In this document: one piece after another, positions 1-21,892 of the stretch
Numbering within the stretch: the stretch's first letter is position 1
How the letters are laid out: each line of letters starts with the position of its first letter
Source: a virus
Virus record (IMG/VR): IMGVR_UViG_3300025168_000625
Span: 1 to 24,954 of that record
Strand: one strand, 5' to 3'
DNA length: 24,954 nt
Made by a program: the position numbers and the translations under genes
Notes under the pieces: model-generated
Database searches by the model: none
Seen by the model: the letters and a program-made list of their open reading frames with translations, nothing else
Told to the model about the DNA's origin: nothing

Positions 1-600
1 ATTACATGGTGTATTTGCATTTAGATCGTAATCTGGAGAGAATACATCTGTACAACCATAAACATTGTCAGCGCATGAACCATCATCACATGTTGCGTTA
101 GCATCGTAATTATCATAAACAGCATCCATACAACCATATATACAGTATTCACATGTACCATCATCTGTATTTGCTAATGCATTATAATTCATAGCGGTTG
201 GATCCGTACAACCAGGTATAACATCTATACAACAATTAACTCCATCGTAACCGTTTGGAGCTCCACTATCATCAACGCAAGCCGTGTTAACGTCTAATTG
301 AGGAGATCCTGATGGGGTAATATAATTAAAAGCTAAAGTATCCAAACAACCAATAATAACTGGGTAGCATGAACCATCATCTACATTGGGCACAGGGTCT
401 TGTAGAGGATCAAAATTAAATGCTGTAATATCTGTACACCCATAAACAGGTAATATACATGAACCATCGTCATCTAAAGCACTTGCATTAAAGTTTAAGG
501 CGTTTGGATCCGTACAGCCCTCAGCTCCAGTCCAACAACTACCATCATCTATATTTGCGGTATCATCATATTCCGGAGACGATATGTCAGTACAACCATA
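1..600 (-). repeat. Seven GCTD...DDGSC protein repeats
   Basis: Within the giant protein, repeat units begin at bases 600, 519, 444, 354, 213, 138 and 60, that is every 25-30 codons except one 47-codon unit. The consensus is YGCTD-x-x-A-x-N-Y/F-N-x-x-A-N-x-DDGSC. Each full unit has one Cys near the start and one at the end, and an acidic Asn/Asp-rich stretch that resembles calcium-binding loops. Unit 4 (starting at 354) is longer and carries extra Cys (CVDDSG, then NCC). The last unit is cut by the window edge, so more may follow. Such repeats are, as I recall, common in secreted proteins of marine Flavobacteriia. Disulfide formation and calcium binding are inferences. Confidence 0.9.
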
Positions 601-3600
601 AATAGGGTCGTCTAAATCTCCAGTAAAACCTAACCCTTGTAAAGAAAACTCACCTGTATCTAAGAAATCACCATCACCTGCTTCACTATAACCTCTAACG
701 TAATTAAACCATTTGTTTTCTTTGTCAATAAACTCAGCCATTTGACCTTCTTGCAGATCAGTATATATGTTATGTACTCTCCAACCTAGTTTATGGTGAT
801 TATCATAGTAATCCTGCCCTATTGGAACTATAACCATAGTTGAAGGATCTATTATTTGGTGAAGATTAGATGTATCTTGAGTTACTCTTGCTTGAGTACC
901 CTCGTAATTAAGGGTTTTAAATCTTTTAACAGTGCCTTGTGCGCCGTTAAATAACACTTTAACCATAGAGTAAGAGTCAACATCATAGAATCTATTTCTA
1001 GCGGTTGTAAATGTTAATTCTGTATTAGTTATTATCCAAACACCTGTCTGTAGACCAATACCAAAGTTTAGTTGTATTAAGCAGTTACTACCATCGCAAT
1101 TTACTAGGTCGACTCTAGTATCTGTTGGTATACCATCTCCCTCTACATTCATACCAGGCAGTATAGTACCTTGACCGTCCGTAACGACAATATTTGGACT
1201 ACCATTGGAATTTGATGTAACAAGTCGTTTTAAATCTATATCTAAACTATGTTGGTAAATTTCAGCTGTATAATCTAAAACACCTAAAGCAGCTCCATAC
1301 GCATGTCCCCAAGGGTTGTTTGCGGTTATTCTGTTGTATTTATTAGATGGAAAGGTGTAATAGGTATTCTTATGACTAATACCACCTTGTTGAACAAAGC
1401 TTTTAAAACTAACCCATCCTCTTGTTTTTTCAGTATAACTAACGGTATAAGCTTTCTCGTTAGCATCTTGATCCATAGTTTCTATGGTTAAATTATATTG
1501 ATTGTCTCTATCATCGTAACTACCCCTTAATGATTTAGAGAACCTTAGGTTGTCTCTAAACCAATCTTTCATGCCTGCATCTGAAATAGGTGTCAAACCG
1601 TCCTTAGATAGTCTTAAAACAGATCCTCTATCTCTATCTGTAAAATATAGTCTATATGATTCTTGCGCAAAAGATTCTGGATTCTTTGATATACCATACT
1701 CACCGCCAAATGGAATTGATTGACCTAATACAGCTTGATTAGAAGTTACATTTGTATTTCCGTCAGCGTTAAATAATGCGTCCTTTTTAGCAAGTATTTT
1801 AAATACTTTGTTTTCACAAAATGTAACCAAGTCAGTATCTCTAGCAAATAATTTTTGAATTGAACCATTTATTGGATTTAGATCTTTAGTTATTGGCTCG
1901 GCTTGGATAAATTCATTTGTTCTATTAACACCACTAGTAGAATTATATATACCAGAAAATATCAAGCCACTACCTTTTCTCTCTTCTTTAAACTGCTCAG
2001 CTAAAGGCATGGACGCTTTAATACCCTTGTCTATTGTTATGGCATTAAAATCATCTCTTATTCTATTAGATTCAACTCCAGTACCGTAAGAATAGCAATT
2101 GAAATAACCTAAACCGTGTAGTACTTGATGGGTGTGACCCTGTAGATTGTTAAAGTCTCCAATTCTATAAGCTGAATTGCTTAAAACCTCAGTAACAGTA
2201 ACCTCAACCCACTCAGTATCGTTTGTAGCGCCATAATAAGTACCTTCTCCTTGCCAAATAATTTTCAAGGTCATTCCAACTCCTAAATCAGTTAACACAT
2301 CAGCGTCGTCCTCTATTATTCTATCAAAAAATATAACATCACCTTTAACAGCGCATATTTTCATTTCTTGAAAGCCATCAGCGATAACAGTTGAGCCGAC
2401 TTTTATTATCTCCTCGCTTCTGTGTGAGAAGTCATACCAATTAGCACCACTTGCGTCTACTTCATCACTACCAGTGTTTCCATCTGCACCAGTTAAATTA
2501 CCATCCCACCTATGTCTTTTTAATTGAATAGGATAAGAAGGGCTAGCCGCGTAATATATGTCTAAACCAACATCTTCCTTTGGTTCTGTTTCCCATATAG
2601 CTGGGTTGTTACTCATTGGAAAGTCTCTATCTTTACCAGTATACAAGGATATAACCTCAATAGTTGTTTCGTTTAAACCCCTTTCATGTAATCCAATATA
2701 TGCTTTAGGGTTATTAGTGTAGTAGGAATCGTTTATATCGTTTGGTTGAGAGTTTATACTTCCACCAGCTCCATTGGCCGCGTTCCAATAAGAATTAAGA
2801 TTATACCACGACTGCGAAGGTGGTGTGGCTCCATAAGTAGTGCTTAGATTAGGTAGGTCAGTACTATACTTCATCCTTCCTCTTTTTATATTAGAAAGAC
2901 CATCAACATCAACGTGATTTGTTATAGGGTGAAAAGCAGACGGACCCTCTGTACCTATTATTTTATCTAAAGTTATAGTGTATCTAACTCTACGGTTGTA
3001 TGGAGCGCCACCAGTTAACTTAGCTCTATTAGTGTGGTGGGTTTTACGCTCAACAACATCAGATATAAATGCCGTTGCACCAGCTAAATTGCTACCTTTA
3101 ACATACCCACCAAAAGGAGGCGCTAAACCACCCATCATTCCACCCCCACCTTTGACTTCAGTCCCATCATCTGAATAACCCCATGATCCTACGGGTGATT
3201 CATAATTCCATATATCTGGCTCAATTTCAGCTCTAGTTATAGTGTAAACGATTTGATCCGGATCTTGTTTAAACCTAAACATAGTACCAACAGTTGCCAT
3301 TGCATCTGCAAATAGAAGTTCAGAAGGCTGGTGTTTAGCTGCTAAAACAGTGTTAGACTCTCTATTATAAGAAGCCTCAGAGCCAACGCCCCAATATGAA
3401 ACTTGCATGAAAGACACATTTCCATCGTCCCATATACCAGCGCCACTACCTCCACTAGCTGCACCAGCTTTATCTATAAACCATCTATCAGGGTGAAAAC
3501 GACCTAAAGGCCAATCACTAAGTATGTCATCTCTACCTCTCCACAAGCTGTACCAGTGAACCCTTAGTTTGGTCATTGTGCTTAAATCATAATATGGTTG

Positions 3601-6600
3601 CTTTCCTTGTGGCCAAGCGCCACCAGCAGCAGCGGGATCTGATAGTAAATCACCTTGATTACCCCAAACAGCGGGTAAGGCAAATGGATTACCAGCAGTT
3701 GGATATAGCTTGCTATCTTTAGCATTAGCGGCTATAACAGCCCCTTCCGTACCAATACCACCAGTATAAGTCCAAGTATGAATAGGATCGGCTATGCAAT
3801 CCCCAGCTGTTTGACCGTTACCAGTACCACCAGCATCACATCCCATAGATAAATCAAGAATAGCACCATCCGGATAAGAAGTTGCAGACAAATAGTCATA
3901 TTGCATTGTACCAGCACTAACACTAGCCTTTTCACCAACCGCAAGCCCCCACATAGCTGGAGGGGCCCAAGCTAGGCTTTTAGGACCATAACTTGGCCAA
4001 CCGTGTAAAGATGGACTTGTGTCAGGAAATATTTTTGGATTACCAGATAAATAACCTAAATCAGCATTTACATTGTTCCACCAGTTGCCGTCTGGTCCTG
4101 GTTTTGTAAAAACACCATCTGTAAAGTTACTAGGTCCATAAGGCCAGTACGGAGAAGAAGAAGGTGGGAGTTGAACTGCAACTGCAGAATCTAAGTAAGG
4201 AGCTAATCTTCCTGCATACTTACCATAAGAACTAACCAAATGTGTTCTGTCTTGAGTAACTCCACTAGCCCAATCTAAATTAGGTGGTATATAGTAAGTT
4301 GGATCATGGTTCCAATCTTGTGTGCCTGGATGAGCAACACATATATATTTTAAATCTTTAGATTGTAGCACTTGGTACTTATCGCCTTCTACTCTTTGAG
4401 ATTGTACTATATTAGCCTCAACGTTAGCATCTCTTAAAACTTTAACAAAGAATCTACCCTGAAATTGAGCTTTCTCTTTTTCTTGCATGGTTCTAGCCTC
4501 TATAGATAAACCTCTAGCCATAGATATATTAGAGTTGGCGGTGTTAACTACGAAAGGTGTTATAACGGAATCAGACACACAAAACAAAGCATCATCACCA
4601 AAAGCTGTTTCAAGTGCTATTCTAACTAACCTAGTGGCTTGACCCTGCACTTCTTGCTCAAAACCATTTTCATCAAAATAAGTTTCAGTTGGAGGTCCAA
4701 TATAACTAATGTTAGCAACGTCATACCAATTAGTGTAATTTGTTAAATCACTAGCGACATCATTGTATGCTGATGGTACGCCTGGTGACTGTGTTATTCT
4801 AATCTGAGCTCCATTAAAACCAGATAAACCTTTTAACATTGTGGAATCAAAGTACTCTGCTATTACATCTATATTCATCCTATTAGGTAGCGGTAATCCA
4901 GTTGGATGTAACATACCAGTATCCCAGTTACCAACATGACCCCAGCCAGGTGGAGGTAACATTATTGGTGCTGATCCCCAATATTTAGCGTCTGTTTTTA
5001 TAAACTTAGGCGCGTTGTTTTTTATCGACAATACCTTGTAAGAAACATCATATTCGGTAAAAGCGTTAGAATCGTGTTTCTTTTTTAATATTAAATTGCT
5101 ATCTTCAGTTATTTTATTTCTCTCAGAAGAAGGGAAGGAAAGCCAAACGCCACCATCTTTAGCATTGTACCAGCGATCCATAGCTAGATTGTAATATTCG
5201 TTAGAAGTTTCTTTTATGTAAAAAGTGTATGATTCAGCCCAATAAGGTGGATCTGACATTAGTCTAACATTTAATCTATTTTGTAAGCTGGCAGCACGTT
5301 TTTGAATATCAACAGATCCTGATTTTGATGTTAATACTGGAGTTTCTCTACCATACTTATCTCTATATACAACTCCTAATTGGTATGTTCTTTGTGATTT
5401 TAAAGATTTAACTGGTTGCCCTAACTCACCATTATCTTCTACAGCATCAGTTTCTCCCCAAGGATTTAATTCTTCAACCTGTGTGAAAAACGATGGTTTA
5501 ATACTTACTCTTTCGTTTAAAGAATCAATTTTTTCTACATTGTATTGTTGTAAGTAGTTAGCAAATATTAATCTATTAGCGGTAACTTCTTGGGCTATAG
5601 CCTTTCTTGGCACATTATCCCAAGGTCTTAATAATTGATTAGAAGCAACAACCTTATGTATTAACTCTGTTTTAATGGTATACTTACCAAAATGACTACC
5701 ATTAGCGGGGGTGTCCCAGTAGTTCTGTGTTTCACCAGCTGGTATTGGATCATCTTTTTGGAATGTTTCTACCGTATAAACGTTTGGCGAGTTAGACTCT
5801 TTGTATAATATATCAATTTGAACAACGTCTTTAGGGCAATTACTTGGCCTCCAGTTTAAAACCTTCAAGAGTCTTAGAGCATTTTCCATGCCTAAGTTAT
5901 AACCTTTTTTAGGTGAGTAGTCAAATCCAGTTGGCACAAAAGCTATTTCAGACCAAGGTGCAAAAACAGAGTATTCTCCGTCTTCATATTTATATCTATA
6001 AGAAAATCTAGGGAATTTTACTTTAAATAAAGGCTCTATTTGTACTAATTCAACTTCGTATGCGTGGCTTCCTTTTGTTCCTAGTATTGGGAAGTTACCA
6101 GACATAGACATAATCTTAGCGTGAACAAATTTGTCAGCCCCATCACCAGGAAGTTTATACATACCCCAAGTAGCTTTTGTTCCCGGTGAAGGAAAGTTAG
6201 TTGGTGGATTTGTAGAGTGATGCGAATAAGGGCTCCAACTAGGACTTACCCAATCTTCACCACCCATACCGTCATCAATCCATCTCGTTTGAGCCGCTGT
6301 TATTATTTGACATCTACAAGTGGCTGTTTTTATGTTACCAAACCCATCATCATAATCATGCTTGATTATTAGTTGATCGTTTGCTTCCCAATCTTCACCC
6401 GATTGAGTTATATCTATAGGTATTATAACCTCATCGCCAGCCTTTTTTTGAACTTTATTTCTAGTGTAAAAAGCACTTATATTAGAACCATCAATACCTC
6501 TACCATAACCAGTTTGTAAAGGAGGCCAATTACCAGCTAATAACGTATCTATATCCTCTGTATAATTATGTGTAGAATCCATGTAACTTCCATAAAAAAC

Positions 6601-6897
6601 AGCTTTAGTAGCAACGCCTTCTGTTACATAGTTTGTGTTAGTTCCGTCAGCAAATTGATATAATTCTATATCTAAAGGCATGGTTGGACCCTTTCGAATA
6701 ACCGTCATGTGTTTTTCTAATACAAAAACAGGCCTACATGTTTCTGAAAATTCACACAGATCATTTACTTGAGGTCTAGGTTTTCCTAGTTCATTTATTT
6801 TTTCAATTCCAGAATTTATACCAGCTGATATAGTGGCCACCATCGTTGACATGATGGTTTGAAATTTTAATGGAGATGCTTTTTTATTTTTCATCAT
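1..6897 (-). CDS. Giant tail hub/stabilization-like protein, C-terminal end beyond the window (partial)
   Basis: One minus-strand frame stays open for 2,299 codons, from an ATG at 6897 to base 1, with no stop. The start forms a TAATG overlap with the stop of the preceding gene; a second ATG follows at once at 6894. Residues 61-75 (EKHMTVIRKGPTMPL), about 291-350 (FPRFSYRYKYEDGEYSVF and following), about 1601-1800 (GTGVESNRIRDDF up to GMKDWFRDNLR) and about 1991-2070 (FKTLNYEGTQARV, then ENKWFNYVRGY) match what I remember of the large stabilization/tail hub proteins of crAss-like and related marine phages. Residues about 637-1136 are rich in Trp, Pro and Gly and look like a variable insertion. 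From residue 2100 seven Cys/Asp repeats follow. It probably sits at the distal tail, where it may contact the host. Family assignment is from memory; the open frame is seen directly. Confidence 0.8.
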   Translation of the reverse strand, partial: MMKNKKASPLKFQTIMSTMVATISAGINSGIEKINELGKPRPQVNDLCEFSETCRPVFVLEKHMTVIRKGPTMPLDIELYQFADGTNTNYVTEGVATKAVFYGSYMDSTHNYTEDIDTLLAGNWPPLQTGYGRGIDGSNISAFYTRNKVQKKAGDEVIIPIDITQSGEDWEANDQLIIKHDYDDGFGNIKTATCRCQIITAAQTRWIDDGMGGEDWVSPSWSPYSHHSTNPPTNFPSPGTKATWGMYKLPGDGADKFVHAKIMSMSGNFPILGTKGSHAYEVELVQIEPLFKVKFPRFSYRYKYEDGEYSVFAPWSEIAFVPTGFDYSPKKGYNLGMENALRLLKVLNWRPSNCPKDVVQIDILYKESNSPNVYTVETFQKDDPIPAGETQNYWDTPANGSHFGKYTIKTELIHKVVASNQLLRPWDNVPRKAIAQEVTANRLIFANYLQQYNVEKIDSLNERVSIKPSFFTQVEELNPWGETDAVEDNGELGQPVKSLKSQRTYQLGVVYRDKYGRETPVLTSKSGSVDIQKRAASLQNRLNVRLMSDPPYWAESYTFYIKETSNEYYNLAMDRWYNAKDGGVWLSFPSSERNKITEDSNLILKKKHDSNAFTEYDVSYKVLSIKNNAPKFIKTDAKYWGSAPIMLPPPGWGHVGNWDTGMLHPTGLPLPNRMNIDVIAEYFDSTMLKGLSGFNGAQIRITQSPGVPSAYNDVASDLTNYTNWYDVANISYIGPPTETYFDENGFEQEVQGQATRLVRIALETAFGDDALFCVSDSVITPFVVNTANSNISMARGLSIEARTMQEKEKAQFQGRFFVKVLRDANVEANIVQSQRVEGDKYQVLQSKDLKYICVAHPGTQDWNHDPTYYIPPNLDWASGVTQDRTHLVSSYGKYAGRLAPYLDSAVAVQLPPSSSPYWPYGPSNFTDGVFTKPGPDGNWWNNVNADLGYLSGNPKIFPDTSPSLHGWPSYGPKSLAWAPPAMWGLAVGEKASVSAGTMQYDYLSATSYPDGAILDLSMGCDAGGTGNGQTAGDCIADPIHTWTYTGGIGTEGAVIAANAKDSKLYPTAGNPFALPAVWGNQGDLLSDPAAAGGAWPQGKQPYYDLSTMTKLRVHWYSLWRGRDDILSDWPLGRFHPDRWFIDKAGAASGGSGAGIWDDGNVSFMQVSYWGVGSEASYNRESNTVLAAKHQPSELLFADAMATVGTMFRFKQDPDQIVYTITRAEIEPDIWNYESPVGSWGYSDDGTEVKGGGGMMGGLAPPFGGYVKGSNLAGATAFISDVVERKTHHTNRAKLTGGAPYNRRVRYTITLDKIIGTEGPSAFHPITNHVDVDGLSNIKRGRMKYSTDLPNLSTTYGATPPSQSWYNLNSYWNAANGAGGSINSQPNDINDSYYTNNPKAYIGLHERGLNETTIEVISLYTGKDRDFPMSNNPAIWETEPKEDVGLDIYYAASPSYPIQLKRHRWDGNLTGADGNTGSDEVDASGANWYDFSHRSEEIIKVGSTVIADGFQEMKICAVKGDVIFFDRIIEDDADVLTDLGVGMTLKIIWQGEGTYYGATNDTEWVEVTVTEVLSNSAYRIGDFNNLQGHTHQVLHGLGYFNCYSYGTGVESNRIRDDFNAITIDKGIKASMPLAEQFKEERKGSGLIFSGIYNSTSGVNRTNEFIQAEPITKDLNPINGSIQKLFARDTDLVTFCENKVFKILAKKDALFNADGNTNVTSNQAVLGQSIPFGGEYGISKNPESFAQESYRLYFTDRDRGSVLRLSKDGLTPISDAGMKDWFRDNLRFSKSLRGSYDDRDNQYNLTIETMDQDANEKAYTVSYTEKTRGWVSFKSFVQQGGISHKNTYYTFPSNKYNRITANNPWGHAYGAALGVLDYTAEIYQHSLDIDLKRLVTSNSNGSPNIVVTDGQGTILPGMNVEGDGIPTDTRVDLVNCDGSNCLIQLNFGIGLQTGVWIITNTELTFTTARNRFYDVDSYSMVKVLFNGAQGTVKRFKTLNYEGTQARVTQDTSNLHQIIDPSTMVIVPIGQDYYDNHHKLGWRVHNIYTDLQEGQMAEFIDKENKWFNYVRGYSEAGDGDFLDTGEFSLQGLGFTGDLDDPIYGCTDISSPEYDDTANIDDGSCWTGAEGCTDPNALNFNASALDDDGSCILPVYGCTDITAFNFDPLQDPVPNVDDGSCYPVIIGCLDTLAFNYITPSGSPQLDVNTACVDDSGAPNGYDGVNCCIDVIPGCTDPTAMNYNALANTDDGTCEYCIYGCMDAVYDNYDANATCDDGSCADNVYGCTDVFSPDYDLNANTPCN

Positions 6898-10213: not shown

Positions 10214-10375
10214 TTATTTATCGTAAGGAAAGAATCTATTTAATGTTTGTTGTCTTTTTTTACAACCACAATCTTTTTTAGTAACTTTACTTACATTATC
10301 TACTACTTTTTTTATTCCTAAGAATTTAGTAACCTTATGTATCGTATCACCTAATCCTTTTGATTTTCTTTTCAT
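10214..10375 (-). CDS. Small basic DCGC-motif protein (53 aa), function unknown
   Basis: I chose the ATG at 10375, giving MKRKSKGLGDTIHK and ending in RFFPYDK. A longer frame can start at 10417, but those extra 14 codons are the stem-loop at 10394-10417, so they are unlikely to be coding. The protein is strongly basic and holds a GLGDTI segment, DCGCKKRQQTLNRFFPY and three to four hydrophobic positions in the middle. Small proteins of this type occur in marine Bacteroidota phages near connector genes, as I recall, with no known role. The CGCKKR segment could bind a metal or nucleic acid, but two Cys are too few to claim a zinc finger. Confidence 0.65.
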   Translation of the reverse strand: MKRKSKGLGDTIHKVTKFLGIKKVVDNVSKVTKKDCGCKKRQQTLNRFFPYDK

Positions 10376-10393
10376 AAAATTAAATTTTAATAA

Positions 10394-10417
10394 ATGGTCG
10401 CCCCGAAGGGCAACCAT
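10394..10417 (-). terminator. UUCG stem-loop after the 283-aa gene (attenuator or weak terminator)
   Basis: On the minus strand ATGGTTGCCC and GGGCGACCAT pair over 10 bp, including one G-T wobble, around a TTCG loop closed by C-G. The sequence after it is TTATTAAAATTTA, a poor U-tract, so termination is likely partial; mRNA 3'-end protection is another possibility. It lies between the stop at 10427 and the 53-aa gene. Confidence 0.65.
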
Positions 10418-20836: not shown

Positions 20837-21223
20837 TTATTTTTTTACTTTTTCTAGTGATCTACCGCCAAAGTAAGCGCCGATTACTGTTATTAATACT
20901 AGTTGTAATAAGTCTACCCACGAAGATTTAACTTCAAATTTGATAATACCAGCATCTATAAATATCAACAAAACTGTTGATACTACTAGAAATATTAAAA
21001 CCAGTGGTCTTATATTTTTACTTAACCAAGAATCGGATTGCATATCCATTTTCCATCTTTCGGTTACTTGTTTTTGCATCTCTGCTTCATAACCCATTAC
21101 TAGGTCTTTTATCTTTGCTTCTGCCTCTGCCTTCTCTTCAGACGACGTGTGCAGATTATCTATGATGCCACCAACGCCTTTTACCAGCTCAGCAGCTCCT
21201 CCTGAAAATAACTTACCTAACAT
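20837..21223 (-). CDS. Holin, three-transmembrane type (128 aa)
   Basis: A holin permeabilises the inner membrane at lysis. The protein has a Gly-rich hydrophobic N-terminal stretch (LGKLFSGGAAELVKGVGGII), a charged helix with VTERWKMDMQSDSWLSKNIR, then two clear membrane segments at about 71-89 (RPLVLIFLVVSTVLLIFI) and 103-120, and the ending GAYFGGRSLEKVKK. This fits the GTA-type 3TM holin family, as I know it. I chose the ATG at 21223, which overlaps the stop of the micro-ORF; a GTG at 21229 would add two residues. No endolysin is visible in this window. Confidence 0.8.
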   Translation of the reverse strand: MLGKLFSGGAAELVKGVGGIIDNLHTSSEEKAEAEAKIKDLVMGYEAEMQKQVTERWKMDMQSDSWLSKNIRPLVLIFLVVSTVLLIFIDAGIIKFEVKSSWVDLLQLVLITVIGAYFGGRSLEKVKK

Positions 21224-21267
21224 GAGCACTTGTGCAGCGATCTACCACATTTTTTACATTTTTTCAT
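21217..21267 (-). CDS. Cys-rich micro-ORF overlapping the holin start (16 aa)
   Basis: The frame reads MKKCKKCGRSLHKCSC and stops at TAG (21219-21217). Its ATG lies three bases after the stop of the 79-aa gene, and its stop overlaps the ATG of the holin. It fills an otherwise empty gap in a packed operon. Cys4, Cys7, Cys14, Cys16 and His12 resemble a small zinc knuckle. It may be a real peptide or a translation-coupling leader for the holin. Expression is unproven. Confidence 0.4.
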   Translation of the reverse strand: MKKCKKCGRSLHKCSC

Positions 21268-21270
21268 ATT

Positions 21271-21510
21271 CTATTCTTTATCTTTACTAGGATCGTATTT
21301 ACTACCAGGATCGTCTTTTGATTGCTTAATCTTATTTATTTCCATGTGGCCATCAAAGTTATTATCTTTAGCATTAGACATGTTTTCTATAATCTGCTCT
21401 TCTTTTTCGTCATAAGCATTTTTCTTTTCAGCTGTAGGTCCAACTGGTTTTTTAGTTAAATCTGTTTTATAAGGAAAACCTCCTTTTGTATATTTCATTC
21501 CGTATCCCAT
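21271..21510 (-). CDS. Small charged protein (79 aa), function unknown
   Basis: I chose the ATG at 21510 (MGYGMKYTKGGFPYK), ten bases after the stop of the HExxH gene. A frame from 21549 would overlap that gene and add 13 residues. The MGYGMKYTKG start recurs in marine phage proteins, as I recall. The rest is hydrophilic, with acidic and Lys-rich low complexity. No membrane segment or motif is seen. Confidence 0.55.
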   Translation of the reverse strand: MGYGMKYTKGGFPYKTDLTKKPVGPTAEKKNAYDEKEEQIIENMSNAKDNNFDGHMEINKIKQSKDDPGSKYDPSKDKE

Positions 21511-21520
21511 AGTTGTTATT

Positions 21521-21892
21521 TTAATGTTTTTCCCAAGGAAGTTCTTCACTACCTTCTGGGTGCCAACGTTCTTTATACTTAATCATACCTTCTAATCTAG
21601 CAAACTTTTCTCCATTCCATGTTATTTCGTCATCAGTATAACCAAGCTTACCAGTTTTCATATCAACGATATGTTTCATTTCGTGTAGTAATACTTTTCT
21701 TTCTTGAGGACTACCTGGTTCTATATGTTCTCCTATAAATATAGTGCCATCATCATTAGCCTCACCATCAATACCTGGTTCTAAATCTTTTCTAATAACT
21801 TTAACCCCAGGAACTGACGCGTCATCTGACTTGTCAAACGACATAGTTTGTTTATTTGACGTTCTACTTTCTTTACCTAGTTTAAATCCCAT
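21521..21892 (-). CDS. HExxH zincin-like protein (123 aa)
   Basis: Residues 70-74 are HEMKH within KVLLHEMKHIVD, a zinc-metalloprotease HExxH motif. The protein is short for a peptidase. The surrounding region (PGIDGEANDDGTIFIGEHIEP at about 39-59) resembles a β-sheet leading to the active helix. The third zinc ligand is not identified: candidate acidic residues lie at Asp77, Asp87-Glu89 and Glu113-Glu117. I recall related genes in marine phages beside structural genes. It may process or remodel a virion protein, or be inactive; that is inference. Confidence 0.6.
   Translation of the reverse strand: MGFKLGKESRTSNKQTMSFDKSDDASVPGVKVIRKDLEPGIDGEANDDGTIFIGEHIEPGSPQERKVLLHEMKHIVDMKTGKLGYTDDEITWNGEKFARLEGMIKYKERWHPEGSEELPWEKH

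What the first reader, a model, noticed from the sequence alone, without database searches (positions are those of the whole stretch)
21217..21267. Micro-ORF MKKCKKCGRSLHKCSC before the holin
A 16-codon frame with four Cys and one His exactly fills the gap between two genes, and its stop overlaps the holin ATG. Either a tiny zinc-binding peptide or a device to control holin translation.
Basis: partly seen in the sequence, partly recalled or inferred. Interest (0 to 1): 0.55.

Follow-up and report, generated by a model that had tools for sequence, protein, structure and literature searches.

The report
Cysteine micro-gene overlapping phage holin start
A 16-amino-acid gene with four evenly placed cysteines sits directly in front of a cell-bursting (holin) gene in marine phages; it is real and conserved, spreads as a tiny cassette, and probably both makes a metal-binding peptide and hands ribosomes on to the holin gene.

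Summary
The micro-ORF is real: minus strand 21267-21217, MKKCKKCGRSLHKCSC*, 7-nt overlap with the holin ATG at 21223. Pattern scans found the same 16-codon frame (CX2CX6CXC, same overlap) before the holin in 30 IMG/VR contigs (with the window: 20 distinct DNA sequences, 12 peptides). A scan that left codons 1-9 and 14 free found 28 of these; all 28 keep Cys4, Cys7 and Cys14, and no Cys-less version appeared. Synonymous changes are in excess (13 of 22, about 18% expected). It is patchy on the holin tree (22 of 166 rows, 15 changes). In the cleanest with/without pairs it is a 41-44-nt cassette placed exactly at the holin start. It takes over the A-rich start context; the window's own holin start scores below all 114 micro-less holin starts. 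The same cysteine motif also ends one longer gene before the holin (L219), with a near variant in L242. Most likely: a selected Cys4 (probably zinc) basic peptide whose translation is coupled to the holin. Zinc binding, translation and coupling are inferred. No cultured phage with it was found.

The parts
21217..21267 (-). 16-codon micro-ORF MKKCKKCGRSLHKCSC* (CX2CX6CXC)
   Evidence: conserved in 30 IMG/VR contigs
21217..21223 (-). 7-nt overlap ATGTTAG: holin ATG, micro-ORF codon 16 and stop
   Evidence: same layout in all 31 members incl. window
21268..21287 (-). A-rich start context of the micro-ORF (A at -3); scores at the median of holin starts that lack a micro-ORF
   Evidence: 57 of 114 score lower
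21224..21243 (-). Region just upstream of the holin ATG, inside the micro-ORF: 5 A and 11 G+C of 20, C at -3; weakest start context of the set
   Evidence: 0 of 114 score lower
20837..21223 (-). holin (128 aa)
   Evidence: PHROG 3427 'holin' E 2.5e-31; Pfam GTA_holin_3TM 22.5 bits, below the 24.8 cut-off
21271..21549 (-). upstream 92-codon frame, stop 3 nt before the micro-ORF ATG; a relative in L003 lies directly before a holin without micro-ORF

Best explanation
The micro-ORF is a real, selectively kept micro-gene: a mobile cassette of about 44 nt inserted exactly between the holin's A-rich translation start region and the holin ATG. It encodes a short, basic, acid-free Cys4 peptide that probably folds around one zinc ion. 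It also captures the ribosome entry region that served the holin, so the holin is now translated mainly by ribosomes that finish the micro-ORF and restart at the ATG lying 1 nt before its stop. Holin output is thereby tied to, and probably set below, that of the peptide. Shown here: conservation of the frame, of Cys4/7/14 and of the overlap; excess of synonymous change; insertion boundaries; patchy distribution; loss of the holin's own start context. Inferred: that the frame is translated, zinc binding, termination-reinitiation, and any effect on lysis timing.
For: 30 contigs plus the window, 20 distinct DNA sequences, 12 peptides, fixed CX2CX6CXC. Cys-blind pattern scan: 29 holin-linked hits, of which 28 hold the micro-ORF with Cys4, 7 and 14; the 29th (L253) has no micro-ORF; 0 of 37 non-holin hits have Cys at codon 14. 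Synonymous 13 of 22 codon steps at the codons left free, neutral 0.176, p 1.6e-5. The window's codons 10-13 and 15 have diverged yet Cys14 is kept. The module also occurs as the C-terminal tail of a 77-aa gene in L219 and, with X8 spacing, in a 31-aa gene in L242, both just before the holin, which argues for the peptide and not only the overlap. Coupling: clean 41-44-nt insertions at the holin ATG; holin start context lost (window below all 114; A at -3 in 85 of 114 micro-less holin starts, 15 of 20 micro-ORF starts, 0 of 10 holin starts behind a micro-ORF). A at -3 is a positive determinant of initiation in Flavobacterium johnsoniae (PMC6847099, passages).
Against: No direct evidence of translation or metal binding. 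Most relatives lack it (144 of 149 distinct loci), so it is dispensable. The 28 contigs are related and only 17 are distinct at DNA level; codons 10-13 vary little outside the window and L105, so part of the conservation may be recent common origin. The pattern scans required the Cys; only searches are free of that. The start-context comparison uses 10 distinct, related contexts, and the host being a bacteroidete rests on terminase similarity. No RNA structure stands out (z 0.05, -1.18, 0.34, 1.06).
Confidence: 0.62

Rival explanations
1. Pure translational device: the peptide has no function of its own; the micro-ORF only delivers ribosomes to, or throttles, the holin start.
For: Fixed 7-nt overlap in 31 of 31 members incl. 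window; holin start context lost; short ORFs that serve only to deliver ribosomes are discussed in a review (PMC12548453, passages).
Against: Cys4, 7 and 14 are kept while synonymous sites change; Cys14 kept in the window although neighbouring codons changed; the same cysteine motif exists without the 7-nt overlap as the end of a longer gene in L219 and, with X8 spacing, in L242.
Confidence: 0.18
2. Pure peptide gene: a zinc-knuckle micro-protein (for instance an RNA- or protein-binding regulator or host modifier) that merely sits in a variable slot before the holin; the overlap is incidental to tight packing.
For: Peptide-level conservation; 12 of 12 distinct peptides carry no Asp or Glu (read); patchy distribution; several upstream gene types (read).
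Against: Always directly before the holin and with the same overlap in the 31 members; holin start context degraded behind it, worst in the window.
Confidence: 0.14
3. Cysteine-sensing leader: ribosome stalling at the Cys codons under low cysteine changes holin translation (as in cysteine attenuators, recalled).
For: Four Cys in 16 codons, overlap with the regulated gene.
Against: Cys are at fixed ligand-like spacing and not in a run; Lys codons are as frequent; no notable RNA structures found; the motif also occurs in longer proteins.
Confidence: 0.04
4. Chance frame in an A-rich leader, not a gene.
For: A-rich leaders can mimic the 3' end: L020/L253 gives ...DFKKNYKC in the same frame without a micro-ORF.
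Against: 28 of 28 Cys-complete frames in the Cys-blind scan, synonymous excess, clean insertions.
Confidence: 0.02

Closest known systems
Translationally coupled overlapping genes (termination-reinitiation); short upstream ORFs coupled to a downstream gene; MS2 and fr coat-lysis coupling
   Same: Stop and start lie within a few nt; a lysis gene depends on translation ending just at its start (PMC12548453, passages).
   Different: Here the upstream frame is a 16-codon Cys4 micro-gene acquired as a cassette in front of a dsDNA-phage holin; overlap is 7 nt, against 38-50 nt in fr/MS2 and the common 1, 4 or 8 nt.
Zinc knuckles / short CX2C zinc-ribbon elements
   Same: Four Cys at ligand-like spacing in a basic peptide.
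   Different: No Pfam match for the 77-aa, 31-aa and L088 20-aa carriers; only weak PDB hits to designed zinc fingers through the KCPKCGK part of the L219 protein (E 0.039); the 16-mer itself is too short for these searches.
Holin/antiholin gene pairs with dual starts (lambda S, recalled)
   Same: A second product made at the holin start that could set lysis timing.
   Different: The micro-ORF is in another frame and has no membrane segment.
Small-gene catalogues of phages and microbiomes (e.g. PMC11364881, search listing only)
   Same: Unannotated conserved short ORFs.
   Different: Whether this 16-codon family is in them was not checked.

Membership tests
Translationally coupled gene pair | Start and stop within a few nt, same strand | tested here: met
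   7-nt overlap in 31 of 31 members incl. window
Translationally coupled gene pair | Downstream start weak on its own | tested here: met
   by sequence score only: window holin context below all 114 micro-less holin starts; 10 other contexts lower on average (0.82 vs 5.90)
Translationally coupled gene pair | Downstream translation falls when upstream translation is stopped | not testable with these tools
   needs reporters
Zinc knuckle / zinc-binding peptide | Four Cys/His ligands at conserved fixed spacing | tested here: met
   CX2CX6CXC; Cys4/7/14 in 28 of 28 micro-ORFs of the Cys-blind scan
Zinc knuckle / zinc-binding peptide | Sequence match to a known zinc family | tested here: inconclusive
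   longer carriers: no Pfam hit, PHROG hits only at E 0.69 and 0.84; 16-mer too short to test
Zinc knuckle / zinc-binding peptide | Binds zinc | not testable with these tools
   needs peptide and spectroscopy
Protein-coding gene | Excess of synonymous change | tested here: met
   13 of 22 steps synonymous, neutral 0.176, p 1.6e-5; third-position excess p 0.0017 (Cys-selected set)
Holin (downstream gene) | Match to a holin family | tested here: met
   PHROG 3427 E 2.5e-31; Pfam GTA_holin_3TM below cut-off
Antiholin | Shares the holin's frame or has a membrane segment | tested here: not met
   different frame, hydrophilic 16-mer (read)

The most novel reading that the evidence does not exclude
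A transferable micro-gene of about 44 nt that phages plug in front of the holin ATG to make lysis depend on metal or redox state: the nascent or finished Cys4 peptide binds zinc and feeds back on ribosomes restarting at the holin, giving a metal-tuned lysis timer.
Probability: 0.1. Interest if true: 0.85.

Novelty: new variant of a known kind. Interest (0 to 1): 0.52.

Why it matters
It is a very short phage gene whose reality can be argued from sequence alone, and it moves as a cassette that captures the start region of the gene deciding when the host bursts. It gives a simple test of whether a 16-residue peptide, its translation, or both set lysis timing, in phages whose likely hosts do not use Shine-Dalgarno sequences. 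Genes this short are easily missed by annotation.

Tried and rejected
Frameshift fusion of micro-ORF and holin: rejected by reading the sequences; the window has no slippery run and the holin frame is closed a few codons upstream in members with TTTAA there. RNA hairpin hiding the holin start: four folds unremarkable. Cysteine attenuator: see rivals. Relatives in named phages: 15 records hold a distant holin; I fetched five of those regions and saw no annotated equivalent; they were covered only by the general small-ORF scan, which ran over all loci held at that time and reported none in them. Peptide searches against phage records: 20-aa L088 peptide no match; L219 tail, L219 protein and L242 peptide only weak, unconvincing matches. 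GTDB genomes: one pattern scan, 0 matches. PHROG 37734 looked like a lead for the L219 tail, but it matches 12 of 14 control genomes and is just a generic motif. A pattern freeing the start codon found 21 further stretches, none with a holin behind it, taken as chance. Non-holin look-alikes (L082, L085, L091, L092, L097, L100, L101, L108, L113, L114, L116, L117, L119, L120, L122, L127) were left out of the family count; L088 too, as its context is different. Structure prediction was not used: the peptide is below the tool's 30-residue limit. Papers: seven searches listed nothing on a Cys micro-gene coupled to a holin; only open-licence PMC papers are covered.

Full report
Observation. The frame is on the minus strand, 21267-21217, MKKCKKCGRSLHKCSC followed by TAG; the + strand reading is closed. 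The upstream frame stops at 21271 and the holin starts at 21223, so the micro-ORF fills the gap and overlaps the holin by 7 nt, ATGTTAG. The stop codon lies 1 nt after the holin ATG; it is codon 16 that shares bases with it. In 200 first-order Markov copies of the window, 4 held any short ORF with a comparable Cys pattern.

The phage. The window is a 24,954-base virus record. Its terminase matches phages of Flavobacterium, Cellulophaga, Tenacibaculum and Maribacter: 87 records, the best a Manatee Spring podovirus at 63%. The gene after the micro-ORF is a holin by PHROG 3427, E 2.5e-31; the Pfam holin model stays just below its cut-off.

Relatives. The 80 best holin relatives in IMG/VR include two with a micro-ORF in the same place: L048 MKKCPKCKRFKKNCKC and L078 MKKCKKCGRFKKNCKC. 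Pattern scans raised the number of holin-linked members to 30 contigs; with the window, 31 members, 20 distinct DNA sequences, 12 distinct peptides, all 16 codons, all with the same 7-nt overlap, followed by a holin of 128 aa (117 in L106, where the fetched stretch ends). The scan allowed 15-27 nt between the second and third Cys, yet all holin-linked finds have 18.

Removing the ascertainment. Those scans demanded the Cys codons. Two tests do not. First, 176 holin loci fetched by holin similarity alone (149 distinct) hold the micro-ORF in 5 distinct loci, all with four Cys, and show no Cys-less equivalent in the same layout. Second, a pattern that fixes only codons 10-13 and 15-17 and leaves codons 1-9 and 14 free found 66 stretches: 29 before a holin, of which 28 hold the micro-ORF with Cys4, Cys7 and Cys14; the remaining one, L253, is the end of another gene plus an A-rich leader. 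None of the 37 other stretches has Cys at codon 14. At the freely sampled codons 13 of 22 codon steps are synonymous against 0.176 expected (p 1.6e-5; steps on a minimum spanning tree of codons, so approximate). In the window, codons 10-13 and 15 have changed but Cys14 has not. Cys16 is no evidence, since ATG TTA GG of the holin supplies it.

A mobile module. On a DNA tree of 166 holins (first seven codons left out), the 22 micro-ORF rows need 15 changes, at least 12 of them forced by well-supported branches; shuffled labels average 21.0. The label is thus scattered but more clustered than random. The window's nearest holins lack it. I compared 23 distinct members with their closest micro-less locus: in 13 the upstream flank is also alike (over 70%). 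In six of these (L093, L095, L096, L102, L103, L124) the alignment needs one internal gap of 41-44 nt, ending at or within a base of the holin ATG; the other seven need more than one gap. In L093 against L206 the leader AAATAAATT precedes the micro-ORF in one and the holin in the other. Upstream genes differ between members: a small membrane-type protein ending FEKVK/FAKK, a glycine-rich protein ending GGY, the HExxH protein (L105), and the window's own 92-codon frame (read).

The motif outside the micro-ORF. Among all loci then held (1.36 Mb), a scan for short ORFs ending in this kind of motif found two more carriers directly before the holin: L219, 77 aa ending KCPKCGKLKSQCGCNY with the same CX2CX6CXC, and L242, 31 aa, MPKARGYGNTRKKKCRKCGKMYTGSKCSCKK, CX2CX8CXC with a TAATG junction. 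These lack the 7-nt overlap, which favours a function in the peptide. Each is a single contig. L088 has a 20-aa MMAAMKKCKKCGKSSKACKC upstream of a portal-like gene, an occurrence away from any holin; the portal name is my reading of the sequence.

Start contexts. From 114 distinct micro-less holin starts I built a position matrix of the 20 upstream bases and scored by leave-one-out (loci whose start lies under 200 nt from the end of the stretch, without an ATG start, with the micro-ORF, and L219/L242 were left out). The window's micro-ORF start scores 6.58, at the median (57 of 114 lower). The window's holin start scores -10.09, below all 114. The ten other distinct holin contexts behind a micro-ORF average 0.82 against 5.90 (Mann-Whitney p 4.5e-4; contexts are related, so not independent). 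A at -3 occurs in 85 of 114 micro-less holin starts, 15 of 20 micro-ORF starts and 0 of 10 holin starts behind a micro-ORF. Among 20 listed window starts the holin is the lowest. In Flavobacterium johnsoniae, A at -3, -6, -12 and -13 favours initiation, and the phylum lacks Shine-Dalgarno sequences (PMC6847099, abstract and passages). Ribosomes that finish one gene can restart at a start codon close to the stop (review PMC12548453, passages). So the micro-ORF has taken over the entry region and the holin probably depends on restart. This is inference; no expression data were available. RNA folding gave nothing notable in four members.

What it most likely is. A Cys4, acid-free, basic micro-peptide gene, probably zinc-binding, translationally coupled to the holin, spread by recombination as a minimal cassette. 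That it is a coding, selected frame I hold at about 0.95; coupling at about 0.75; zinc binding at about 0.6; the combined statement at 0.62, with zinc the least certain part of it. I found no cultured phage with it: one pattern scan of GTDB genomes gave 0, and peptide searches of phage records gave no convincing match. Literature searches listed no description of such a gene; this covers open-licence PMC papers only.

Novelty. Coupled overlapping genes, short leader ORFs and zinc knuckles are known kinds. A Cys4 micro-gene that inserts at a holin start and takes over its initiation context is, as far as I searched, an undescribed variant.

Noticed in passing
L075 4175-4237; L079 3234-3296: A 20-aa Cys-rich ORF, MCNCKECNCGT(S/T)CECTCC(D/N)C, lies downstream of the holin in two contigs.
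   Followed up: no
L082 7032-7082 (-); L101 358-408 (+): A different 16-aa Cys-rich ORF, MKKCDCC(N/D)CC(D/N)CGCGC, with GGAG a few bases upstream, directly before a gene with a lipoprotein-like start.
   Followed up: no
L088 5975-6037 (-): A 20-aa MMAAMKKCKKCGKSSKACKC with AAGGAG upstream, followed by a small Lys/Pro/Ala-rich gene and a 587-aa portal-like gene: the same Cys spacing in a quite different phage.
   Followed up: partly
window 21521-21892 (-): 123-aa protein with an HEMKH (HExxH) motif two genes before the holin; relatives ending FPWE(D/N)DANNGN often lie directly before the holin. Its role in lysis is unknown.
   Followed up: no
window 1-6897 (-): One open frame of at least 2299 codons runs off the end of the record.
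   Followed up: no
L001-L080, region just upstream of the holin: The slot before this holin is strongly variable: glycine-rich, membrane, HExxH and MAFKMKG-type genes alternate before otherwise similar holins.
   Followed up: partly
window 10214-10417 (-): 67-aa basic protein ending KKDCGCKKRQQTLNRFFPYDK, with a CGC motif near its end; no Pfam hit.
   Followed up: no
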